Positions 1,173 to 39,851 of a stretch of DNA of 39,851 bases are shown in pieces; positions within the stretch are counted from its first letter, which is position 1; each line of letters opens with the position of its first letter. Source of the stretch: Clostridia bacterium. GTDB taxonomy: Bacteria; Bacillota; Clostridia; Christensenellales; Aristaeellaceae. The notes beneath the pieces are model-generated. The model did not search any database. It was not told where the DNA came from and saw only the letters and a program-made list of their open reading frames with translations. The stretch spans positions 1 to 39,851 of the forward strand of contig JAFZPV010000010.1 of assembly GCA_017552535.1 (NCBI GenBank). The letters are read 5' to 3'. The translations under genes and the position numbers were made by a program.

Positions 1173-1654
1173 CTGCCGCACAAACCGGTGCAAGGTTCGC
1201 GCCGCGAATAAACCAGTTTCAAACGTAACCAAAGCTAAACGGGGCTGTTGCAGAAGTCTGAAGAATCTACCGGGTGGCTTGGAGGGGCGCTGCCTCTCCA
1301 GTTTTAATCCGCAGGGCCGGCTTTGCCGGCCCGAGAAGCGATTTTTTGCGCCGGAAACGCAGCAAAGTGGAGACGACCAGAGCAAAGAATCGCTTCGCTG
1401 CAGTTTGAGGTTGACTAGCCCTGAGCAAGTCAGTCCCGCACCGAGTGCGAGACGCACTGATTCAAATCGAAGATTTGAAGCAGCGCGCTTTGCACCCGAA
1501 AACTCCGCAGAGGTTTAGCAAAAATAAGATACTTGTTGCTGAGACCGGATATTATCAGACATTTCGGATATGAATCAGGCAAAAGACCCCCCAAAGCCTA
1601 ACCGCCGGAAATGAAACCCCATTTCATTCCAGGCGAGGGGCTGTTCAGCAGCCC
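1173..1654 (-). repeat. Repeat family copy A, long form with a degenerate partial copy beside it
   Basis: This fills the 572-bp gap between the sialidase and iscU genes; no gene is seen. Bases 1241-1654 correspond to the element at 37543-37942: same start (GGGGCTGTTGCAGAAG), same series of hairpins, same end hairpin (GGGCTG/CAGCCC at 1638-1654). The iscU-proximal end is degenerate. Bases 1173-1240 resemble the right-hand unit of the family (compare GCACAAACCGGTG with GCACAAATCGGTG at 37830-37842), so this locus holds a partial copy joined to a full one. The end hairpin lies 13 nt past the iscU stop codon. A 15-bp stem at 1335-1349 / 1382-1396 contains one G-U wobble. Confidence 0.8.
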
Positions 1655-1667
1655 GAGGGCAACCCTT

Positions 1668-21449: not shown

Positions 21450-21590
21450 GGGGCTGCTGAACATCCCCTCGCTGGAAATGAAATAAGATTTCATTTCCTG
21501 CGGTTTCGTTTTGGATACATTTGAAACGATTTATCCGAAACGTCTATATTTCATCAACTTGTGCAACAGCCTCGATGGGCTGTTTAGAAG
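21450..21590 (+). repeat. Repeat family copy C, short form
   Basis: This contains only the terminal unit of the family: GGGGCTGCTG (21450-21459), the GGAAATGAAA / TTTCATTTCC hairpin, then GTTTTGGATACATTTGAAA, TTTATCCGAAACGT and CTTGTGCAACAG (to 21569). The ends GGGGCTGCTG and CAACAGCCTC form short imperfect terminal inverted repeats. A remnant GGGCTGTTTAGAAG (21577-21590) resembles the far end of the long copies. It starts 7 nt past the ATPase stop and fills most of the 174-bp gap to the convergent esterase gene. Confidence 0.8.
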
Positions 21591-31027: not shown

Positions 31028-31100
31028 TGACTCATCGGGGATTCGAACCCCGGACACCCTGATTAAAAGTCAGGTGCTCTACCGACTGAGCTAATGAATC
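31028..31100 (-). tRNA. tRNA-Lys (anticodon TTT)
   Basis: 73-nt cloverleaf. Acceptor arms GATTCAT and ATGAGTC pair throughout (one G-U). The anticodon arm is CCTGA-CTTTTAA-TCAGG, giving TTT, and the T arm carries GGTTCGAATCC. The discriminator is A. The 3' CCA is not encoded; the next bases are TCA. Last gene of the four-tRNA cluster. Confidence 0.95.
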
Positions 31101-31112
31101 GCATAAAAATAC

Positions 31113-31185
31113 CTGGGGTGGCTGGGCTCGAACCAGCGAATCCGGGAGTCAAAGCCCCGTGCCTTAACCGCTTGGCTACACCCCA
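31113..31185 (-). tRNA. tRNA-Gln (anticodon TTG)
   Basis: 73 nt. Acceptor TGGGGTG / CACCCCA; anticodon arm CGGGG-CTTTGAC-TCCCG with anticodon TTG; T arm GCTGGTTCGAGCCCAGC. The discriminator is G. CCA is not encoded (next bases GTA). Confidence 0.95.
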
Positions 31186-31199
31186 GCGTGAACAGGAAG

Positions 31200-31274
31200 G
31201 GTGAATGGTGGGTCTCGAACCCACGACCTCCAGGGCCACAACCTGGCACTCTAACCAACTGAGCTACATCCACC
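31200..31274 (-). tRNA. tRNA-His (anticodon GTG)
   Basis: 75 nt including an encoded extra 5' G, the G-1 of bacterial tRNA-His, opposite discriminator C. Acceptor GTGGATG / CATTCAC; anticodon arm CCAGG-TTGTGGC-CCTGG with anticodon GTG. CCA is not encoded (next bases CTT). Confidence 0.95.
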
Positions 31275-31278
31275 ACAA

Positions 31279-31352
<74 letters not shown>

Positions 31353-37542: not shown

Positions 37543-37942
37543 GGGGCTGTTGCAGAAGCCTGAAAAATAAGTCGGGTGGCTTGGAGGGGGTTACCCCTCC
37601 AATTTCAACCCGCAGGGCCAGCTTTGCCGGCCCGAGGAGGAAAAATCACGAAGGGCAGCTTGCCGCCCGAGAGTGATTTTTCTGTCTTTGCAGTTTGAGG
37701 TTGACTTGCCCATGGCAAGTCAATCCCGCACAAAGTGCGGGACGCACTGGTTCAAATCAAAGATTTGAAGCAGCGCGCCTTTCGCCCGGAAATGCCCGCA
37801 GGCATTTCAGAAAAAACTGAAAACCTGTTGCACAAATCGGTGAATATTTACGTTTCGGAAAAACAAGATTCAAATGTATCCAAAACTAAACGCTGGAAAT
37901 GAAATTCATTTCATTTCCAGCGAGAGGCTGCTCAGCAGCCCC
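37543..37942 (-). repeat. Repeat family copy D, best-preserved complete long form (400 bp)
   Basis: Ends are GGGGCTGTTG and CAGCAGCCCC, short inverted repeats. Inside is a chain of hairpins in order: GGAGGGG/CCCCTCC, GGGCC.GC/GC.GGCCC, GAAAAATCAC/GTGATTTTTC (37640-37649 / 37673-37682, enclosing GGGC.GC/GC.GCCC), GACTTGCC/GGCAAGTC, TCCCGCAC/GTGCGGGA, TTCAAATC/GATTTGAA, GAAATGCC/GGCATTTC, GGAAATGAAA/TTTCATTTCC, and GGCTGCT/AGCAGCC. Its last base is 1 nt from the rubredoxin stop codon. No gene is supported inside. Confidence 0.88.
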
Positions 37943-37943
37943 T

Positions 37944-38099
37944 TCAGGCTTCGGTAAACGCGTCCTTTCCCAGTCCGCATACGGGGCAGACCCAGTCCTC
38001 GGGGATGTCTTCAAACGCGGTACCGGGCGCGATGCCGCCCTCGGGATCGCCGACTTCGGGATCGTACACGTAGCCGCAGGGGCACTCGAACTTCTTCAT
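37944..38099 (-). CDS. Rubredoxin with a shortened first knuckle
   Basis: 51 residues, electron carrier with an Fe(Cys)4 centre. The second knuckle is normal (WVCPVCG, Cys38 and Cys41), and [20 protein letters not shown] is the family signature. The first knuckle reads ECPCGY, a CXC (Cys6, Cys8) in place of the usual CXXC, one residue short. The reading frame is otherwise intact, so it is a 3-nt difference and not a frameshift. SD AAAGGAA at the chosen start; the frame extends further upstream into the promoter. It may have altered geometry or redox potential. Confidence 0.92.
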
Positions 38100-39614: not shown

Positions 39615-39851
39615 GGGCTGTTGCACAGCCCCTCGTTGGAAATGAAAAAAGATTTCATTTCCAACGGTTTAGTTTTGGACACATTTGAACCGTTTTATCC
39701 GAAACGTCAATCATTCACCAGCTTGTGCAACAGGTTTTCAGTTTTTTCTGAAATGCCTGCGGGCATTTCCGGGCGAAAAAACTGCAATGAAGCGATTCTT
39801 TGCTCTCGGCGGGCAAGCTCGCCTTCGCAAAAATCGCTCCTCGAGCCGGCA
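39615..39851 (+). repeat. Repeat family copy E, long form cut by the window end
   Basis: It starts 4 nt after the transporter stop with the end hairpin GGGCTGT/ACAGCCC (39615-39631), then GGAAATGAAA/TTTCATTTCC, TTTAGTTTTGGACACATTTGAA, TTTATCCGAAACGT and CTTGTGCAACAG, followed by the inner module with GAAATGCC/GGCATTTC and a stem near 39789-39839. It is in the same order as the reverse complement of 37543-37942. The left part is beyond the window. Confidence 0.85.

What the first reader, a model, noticed from the sequence alone, without database searches (positions are those of the whole stretch)
37543..37942. A multi-hairpin repeat family placed immediately after stop codons, always in the same orientation
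Seen directly: four copies (1173-1654, 21450-21590, 37543-37942, 39615 onward). The same end (the GGGCTG hairpin followed by the GGAAATGAAA hairpin) lies 13, 7, 1 and 4 nt after the stop codons of iscU, an ABC ATPase, rubredoxin and an ion transporter, and each copy is read in that gene's direction. Two of these genes are on each strand. Random insertion would not favour one end and one orientation relative to transcription. The long form is a chain of about nine hairpins and could be a 3' UTR element affecting termination, RNA stability or export from the transcript. The GGGGCTG(T/C)TG ends are MITE-like and recall IS ends containing CTGTTGCA (family knowledge, e.g. IS26). Inference: an undescribed element that either targets gene ends or serves as their 3' processing signal.
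Basis: partly seen in the sequence, partly recalled or inferred. Interest (0 to 1): 0.78.

Follow-up and report, generated by a model that had tools for sequence, protein, structure and literature searches.

The report
Mobile hairpin repeats behind stop codons
Short mobile DNA repeats that fold into chains of hairpins sit just behind the stop codons of many unrelated genes in gut-type Clostridia, usually pointing the way the gene is read, and share a core whose paired positions have changed together across several genera.

Summary
The window's four copies start 13, 7, 1 and 4 nt after stop codons. The assembly has 63 matches, at least 55 copies. Of 49 with a usable 5' end, 38 follow a same-sense gene and 27 start within 15 nt of its stop; random intergenic points give 39% and 5.6%. 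A second genome (60 of 80 copies examined) shows the bias too: co-directional gene pairs 39 sense versus 9 antisense.

Long copies share a three-hairpin core: 43 of 47 base pairs change on both sides across 99 sequences. Rfam has no match. It occurs in 29 of 60 genomes of the family.

Copies are mobile: few orthologous sites in sister species hold the core. In eight loci from four other genomes the element lies between two copies of a host hairpin; here A-rich and T-rich flanks suggest a terminator stem-loop was replaced. Both outcomes fit the model published for IS1272 (PMC5678879, passages). The mobilising enzyme was not found; sense bias and the conserved core remain unexplained.

The parts
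37543..37942 (-). Complete long-form element; 5' end faces the rubredoxin stop codon, 3' end faces a predicted convergent gene
   Evidence: fold z -12.8
37926..37942 (-). H1, 5'-terminal hairpin GGGGCTGCTGAGCAGCC; its 5' arm also pairs with the 3' end in the predicted RNA fold
37891..37922 (-). H2, 14-bp hairpin followed by TTTAGTTTTG; scored terminator-like (2 such sites in the region, shuffles mean 1.3)
37599..37824 (-). Conserved core (model R1 match), holding H3, H4 and H5
   Evidence: 142.7 bits; covariation
37701..37779 (-). Three extra hairpins (H3b, H3c, H3d) of the long form, inserted inside the outer stem of H3
37640..37682 (-). H4
37615..37633 (-). H5 (GGGCCGGC AAA GCTGGCCC), between TCCTCG and TGCGG
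   Evidence: conserved columns
37581..37602 (-). H6
37543..37554 (-). 3' terminal inverted repeat TGCAACAGCCCC (reads GGGGCTGTTGCA on the + strand)
1241..1655 (-). Second complete long-form element, 13 nt after the stop of an IscU/NifU_N gene
   Evidence: core match 1298-1532
21450..21584 (+). Short form: H1, H2, linker hairpin and a final AACAGCC..GGCTGTT hairpin; no core
39615..39851 (+). Element cut off by the contig end, 4 nt after the stop of a CitMHS-type transporter
   Evidence: partial core match 39734-39851
37944..38099 (-). Rubredoxin gene upstream of the element
   Evidence: Pfam PF00301

Best explanation
These are copies of a family of short, non-autonomous, palindrome-rich mobile repeats. 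They insert at the stem-loop that lies behind a stop codon (as a rule the gene's intrinsic terminator), either replacing that stem-loop or ending up between two copies of it, mostly with one fixed end towards the stop codon. Afterwards the element's own hairpins (H1/H2 with a T-rich tract, and the two ends pairing with each other) take over the 3' end of the upstream gene. Shown: multi-copy family, mobility, stop-codon proximity, sense bias, covarying core, doubled host hairpins in several other genomes. Inferred: the stem-loop-replacing insertion step, the terminator role, and that orientation is set partly by selection. Unknown: the enzyme that moves them and what the conserved core does.
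For: Copies: 63 merged matches in this genome, at least 55 copies if 8 contig-end matches are halves of others. Placement: 38, 27 and 33 of 49; 46 of 60 copies downstream of a same-sense gene; ++ 39 versus -- 9, p = 1.5e-5. Mobility: in 60 post-stop regions of orthologous genes from six sister species (13 sites) R1 found the core in 4 loci at E <= 0.01, strongly in 2 (L291, L323), L291 in the opposite orientation. Target: of 101 core matches scanned, 8 loci (from four genomes) have the element between two copies of a hairpin (L215 31/31 nt, L190 30/31, L197 25/25, L214 28/28, L186, L200, L201, L205); L054 shows the same by eye. Flanks here: A is 52% of the last 6 nt in 35 left flanks and T 49% of the first 6 nt in 30 right flanks against 20% background; a run of four T in 9 of 30 right flanks versus 3.7% of random 10-mers (ends set by motif, some right ends misplaced, left flanks include stop-codon bases). 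Published precedent (passages read): IS1272 and TnSha1 remove all or part of target hairpins, several of them confirmed terminators (PMC4923244), and the model of PMC5678879 also foresees duplication of the stem-loop on both sides. An intact IS1182-type IS in a relative (L258) has ends CAGCCTGTCAAAAAAGG and lies between two copies of ACTGCCCAAGGGCAGT; some elements of other Clostridia end in similar CAGACTGTCAAAAAA-like repeats (by eye).
Against: No IS1182-type transposase in any of the 7 genomes of the genus (PF05598, PF13751), and presence of PF05598 does not track the element in 36 genomes of the family (4 of 17 with, 7 of 19 without; p = 0.48); several of these genomes are incomplete. The genome's ends resemble an IS1182-type end only over a few bases (GGGGCTGT; L272). 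Targeting a palindrome does not predict a strong orientation bias; TnSha1 was found in both orientations at one target. No doubled hairpins were recognised around 60 copies of the second genome. No empty site from the same species was available, so replacement was never seen directly. R1 tests only for the core, so a core-less copy at an orthologous site would be missed.
Confidence: 0.5

Rival explanations
1. A functional 3'-UTR element: the hairpin chain is transcribed with the upstream gene and acts on termination, RNA decay or translation, as REP sequences within 15 nt of a stop codon do in E. coli; placement and sense orientation are kept by selection after more random insertion.
For: Tight, sense-biased placement; some copies without H1 (C7, C9:7821, C15:21064, C16:5403, C27:32144) still begin with H2 1-5 nt behind the stop; strong covariation with conserved unpaired bases; the core also occurs in viral contigs; REP precedent PMC12306157 (passages).
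Against: Few of the sites tested are occupied in sister species. G-U pairs are not generally enriched: 113 G-U versus 79 A-C versus 244 other mismatch cells, and 60 of the 113 lie in two columns, so the pairing does not clearly belong to RNA of one strand. H2 is not followed by a good T-run in every species.
Confidence: 0.3
2. REP-like elements moved as folded single-stranded DNA by a Y1 (RAYT/IS200-type) transposase.
For: Extragenic, hairpin-based, near stop codons; hairpin sequences differ between genomes; strong DNA hairpins; G000 has one Y1 transposase.
Against: That transposase lies between its own CCACCGGC-type hairpins nested inside one element copy, so it reads as a separate IS200-like insertion. 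PF01797 does not track the element (6 of 17 with, 3 of 19 without, p = 0.26). Orientation follows the gene on both strands within one contig. The elements have terminal inverted repeats.
Confidence: 0.08
3. Insertion coupled to transcription or to RNA (for example a cDNA intermediate), which would give sense orientation in the ribosome-free stretch behind a stop codon.
For: Sense bias at co-directional genes, significant in the second genome (39 versus 9) and in the mixed set (41 versus 17), same direction but not significant here (13 versus 6).
Against: About a fifth to a quarter of copies are not sense to the upstream gene (11 of 49; 14 of 60); doubled hairpins are an outcome foreseen by a published DNA transposition model. 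No reverse transcriptase was looked for.
Confidence: 0.05

Closest known systems
IS1272 / IS1182-family insertion by replacement of stem-loops (PMC5678879 abstract and passages, PMC4923244 passages)
   Same: Hairpins, often transcription terminators, as targets; no short target duplication where the hairpin is replaced; the model also foresees doubled stem-loops, as in L215, L197 and others; similar ends in some Clostridia
   Different: These elements carry no transposase, hold a conserved multi-hairpin core, and show strong sense bias; no IS1182-type transposase was found in the genus
REP/BIME sequences of E. coli (PMC12306157, passages read)
   Same: Extragenic palindromic repeats, many copies per genome, some just behind stop codons
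   Different: About 140-410 bp chain with terminal inverted repeats, against REPs of a few tens of bases (REP size recalled); about 11% of E. coli REPs in that paper (446 of 4,072) lie within 15 nt of a stop, against 27 of 49 here
MITEs in general (recalled)
   Same: Short, non-coding, terminal inverted repeats, many copies
   Different: Internal core kept by compensatory changes across genera that have different ends
MIRU repeats of mycobacteria (recalled; search listing only)
   Same: Inserted between genes, oriented with transcription (recalled)
   Different: MIRUs encode small frames and sit at overlapping stop/start codons (recalled); no sequence comparison was made

Membership tests
IS1182-family non-autonomous derivative | Terminal inverted repeats matching a resident IS1182-type IS | tested here: not met
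   No PF05598 or PF13751 hit in 7 genomes of the genus. 19 of 20 exact GGGGCTGTTGCA sites lie in or within 100 nt of listed copies and no autonomous pair was recognised; one-mismatch sites were not each followed. Similar ends exist in relatives (L258, L272).
IS1182-family non-autonomous derivative | Insertion at hairpins/terminators with stem-loop replacement or duplication | tested here: inconclusive
   Doubled hairpins in 8 loci of four genomes and A/T-rich flanks; no same-species empty site; none doubled was recognised in 60 copies of a second genome
REP/RAYT system | Cognate Y1 transposase of the RAYT type in the same genomes | tested here: not met
   PF01797 in 6 of 17 element-bearing family genomes; the G000 copy is a nested IS200-like insertion
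Rfam RNA families | Match above the gathering score | tested here: not met
   Window: four tRNAs only; 491 bases at E <= 10: 12 hits, all far below gathering; 20 loci from other hosts: one tRNA
Structured RNA in general | Compensatory base changes in helices | tested here: met
   29 of 47 pairs on A1; 43 of 47 on A2, 1007 cells versus 282 shuffled, slid at most 211 (A2 is fitted to the model)
Structured RNA in general | G-U tolerated over A-C (one strand read as RNA) | tested here: inconclusive
   113 G-U versus 79 A-C cells; excess confined to two columns
Structured RNA in general | The element is transcribed | not testable with these tools
   no RNA data

The most novel reading that the evidence does not exclude
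The core is an undescribed class of folded nucleic acid (RNA, or single-stranded DNA) that spreads through Clostridia in dozens of copies per genome inside changing mobile ends, and lodges behind stop codons in sense orientation because the folded sense strand itself is what works there: it becomes the gene's new 3' end or brings about its own insertion at gene ends.
Probability: 0.25. Interest if true: 0.85.

Novelty: new variant of a known kind. Interest (0 to 1): 0.62.

Why it matters
If right, mobile repeats have rewritten the 3' ends of dozens of genes in these genomes, so gene ends here are partly a product of transposition. The core would be a large multi-copy structured family absent from Rfam, and it gives a clean case for asking whether sense bias behind stop codons comes from the insertion step or from selection. 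It also occurs, weakly scored, in a named strain (Anaerotignum neopropionicum DSM-3847, 6 matches, best E 1.2e-7), where it could be tested.

Tried and rejected
Rfam at gathering and permissive thresholds: nothing. Autonomous parent by its ends in the own genome: none recognised. IS1182-type and Y1 transposases as trackers of the element: no association (PF13751 also 0 of 7 in the genus). Terminal repeats around PF05598 hits: of 19 loci only L258 and L272 were informative. Phage records for the viral-contig form: no match for one 241-base query. Replication-strand orientation as the cause: in the window all four elements, and in contig C15 6 of 7, follow the adjacent gene on both strands. Wobble test for RNA versus DNA: inconclusive. 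Class-wide search: 3 of 391 genomes including the own one, so the modelled form is centred on one family. Paper searches listed nothing that I recognised as this repeat; only titles and abstract starts were seen, and they cover only the open-licence library and those terms.

Weak points: gene calls come from my own codon-usage script, not a published gene finder. The genome-contig loci (80 listed of 103 stretches) were chosen by a pattern that fixes TCCTCG, GCAAAGC and CTGCGGA, so conservation at those columns is partly by selection. (++ 41, -- 17; 65 of 90 with a same-sense upstream gene) mixes several loci of the same genomes and overlaps slightly. Searches scored 40 candidates each, so copies were missed (C23:21609 and the copy in L432 are not among the 63), while 8 matches with only a 3' part at contig ends may be halves of 8 others. 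In one search, three of 60 copies (L361, L369, L385) have masked upstream sequence.

Full report
What is there. The window holds four copies of one repeat: 1241-1655 (-), 21450-21584 (+), 37543-37942 (-) and 39615 to the contig end (+). They begin 13, 7, 1 and 4 nt after the stops of an IscU/NifU_N protein, an ABC ATPase, rubredoxin and a CitMHS-type transporter. The complete copy at 37543-37942 is a chain of hairpins with inverted ends (GGGGCTGYTG type). Read 5' to 3' on the minus strand: H1, H2, a linker that also folds, H3 (split in this long form by three extra hairpins), H4, H5, H6 and the 3' end, which is complementary to the 5' end. Its folding energy is 12.8 standard deviations below dinucleotide shuffles as RNA and 8.7 as DNA. 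The copy at 21450 lacks the core; the other three have it, the last one cut.

How many and where. Three searches of the own genome (2.39 Mb, 77% complete) gave 63 merged matches. Eight of them are 3' parts at contig ends that may belong to eight 5' parts at other contig ends, so the listed matches stand for at least 55 copies. Others were missed, since each search scored 40 candidates: one more appears (C23) and one, interrupted by an IS200-like element. I fetched 59 stretches around copies and called genes with a codon-usage script. Of 63 matches, 49 had a usable 5' end. 38 of 49 follow a gene of the same sense, 27 of 49 start within 15 nt of its stop and 33 of 49 within 30 nt; random points in 112 element-free intergenic regions of the same stretches give 38.6%, 5.6% and 10.2%. 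Not all copies agree: 11 of 49 do not point away from an upstream stop, and between co-directional genes the split here is 13 sense to 6 antisense, not significant alone.

A second genome. Christensenella sp. UBA4379 (L193, handle G486; its matches have the same contig coordinates as those of G012 of the own family) has 80 core matches. I fetched 60 of the 80, from the top of the list. 46 of 60 lie downstream of a same-sense gene; between co-directional genes 39 are sense and 9 antisense (p = 1.5e-5). In 34 of 60 the core begins within 70 nt of a same-sense stop, and the leading hairpin often begins within a few bases of it (by eye). The ends of these elements differ from those in the window, so the placement goes with the family rather than with one set of ends. 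In 97 further core matches, partly pattern-selected and not all from different genomes, 65 of 90 with an upstream gene were same-sense, ++ 41 versus -- 17 (p = 0.002).

The core. H3-H4-H5 and the bases between them could be aligned across genera. In 29 sequences, 29 of 47 base pairs show changes on both sides, 183 cells against 61 in shuffles and at most 42 when the partners are slid. A covariance model (R1) collected 104 matches, 99 distinct: 91.7% of cells paired, 43 of 47 pairs with double changes, 1007 cells against 282 shuffled and at most 211 slid (this alignment was fitted to the model). Unpaired bases such as TGCGGA after H5 and two A of its loop are at least 90% conserved, with the caution that many loci were fished with a pattern that fixes them. 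G-U pairs are not generally enriched over A-C or other mismatches, except in two columns, so covariation shows kept palindromes but does not settle whether the working form is RNA or DNA. Rfam has nothing but tRNAs for the window and for 20 loci of other hosts.

Distribution. R1 matches 30 of 100 genomes including the own one: 29 of 60 in the own family and 1 of 40 in other families of the order; class-wide, 3 of 391 including the own genome. Genome-wide, the last-named genome has 6 R1 matches, the Defluviitaleaceae genome 29 and a Lachnospiraceae genome 14.

Mobility and target. For 13 insertion sites I fetched 60 post-stop regions of the orthologous genes in six sister species. R1 found the core in four at E <= 0.01: strongly in L291, where it has the opposite orientation, and in L323, weakly in L320 and L328. 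So most of the sites tested are not shared, although one (C54:27913) has an element in G000, G002 (L323) and, with H2 visible behind the stop, G006 (L320). In eight loci from four other genomes the element lies between two copies of a hairpin that looks like the local terminator, and L054 shows the same by eye. In this genome I saw no doubled hairpin. Instead the left flank is A-rich and the right flank T-rich (52% A, 49% T against 20%), as expected if a terminator stem-loop was replaced. Several sister genomes have a plain terminator-like hairpin at the corresponding place (L286, L287, L311, L329, read by eye). PMC5678879 (abstract and passages) and PMC4923244 (passages) report this kind of insertion for IS1272 and TnSha1 of the IS1182 family, and the model figure of the former includes both replacement and duplication of the stem-loop. 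An IS1182-type IS in a relative, L258, is itself flanked by a doubled palindrome.

What does not fit. No IS1182-type transposase was found in seven genomes of the genus by two Pfam families, and neither PF05598 nor Y1 transposases track the element in 36 family genomes. Hairpin targeting alone does not predict sense bias. It also does not explain why the core is kept across genera with different ends, or why some copies that lack H1 still start with H2 right behind the stop. E. coli REPs within 15 nt of a stop codon act on translation (PMC12306157, passages), so a role at the 3' end remains possible.

Verdict. The best-supported account is a family of non-autonomous palindromic mobile repeats that land on, and take over, terminator stem-loops behind stop codons. 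The enzyme, the cause of the sense bias and the function of the core are open.

Noticed in passing
L432 (own genome, contig C6): An IS200-like element with a Y1 transposase and its own CCACCGGC hairpins is nested in the linker of another copy of the repeat, whose H2 end again appears by eye to lie close behind a gene end.
   Followed up: partly
L258:1265-2804: IS1182-type insertion sequence (449-aa frame) flanked on both sides by the palindrome ACTGCCCAAGGGCAGT.
   Followed up: partly
L249, L254, L158, L250, L251: One to three core copies per contig, in a form without the usual ends, in viral contigs (L158 is a genome contig with near-identical sequence), reading with the neighbouring predicted genes.
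   Followed up: no
L382, L392: In the second genome the end repeat of some elements contains TAA, and the predicted stop codon of the upstream frame lies inside it.
   Followed up: no
window 1173-1240: A fragment that looks like the linker of another copy, directly downstream of the copy at 1241-1655.
   Followed up: no
H4 across copies: H4 exists in clearly different sequence versions (AGCGATT..AATCGCT and AGAAAAATCAC..GTGATTTTTCT) that swap as whole stems between copies of one genome.
   Followed up: no
L160, L208, L218: The H3 region is expanded by roughly 100 nt of further hairpins compared with other copies.
   Followed up: no
contig ends of C5, C10, C20, C22, C24, C28, C30, C33, C34, C38, C43, C47, C53, C54, C59, C61 and the window: Many contigs of the assembly stop inside or at copies of the repeat.
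   Followed up: no
window 31028-31352: Cluster of four tRNA genes on the minus strand.
   Followed up: no
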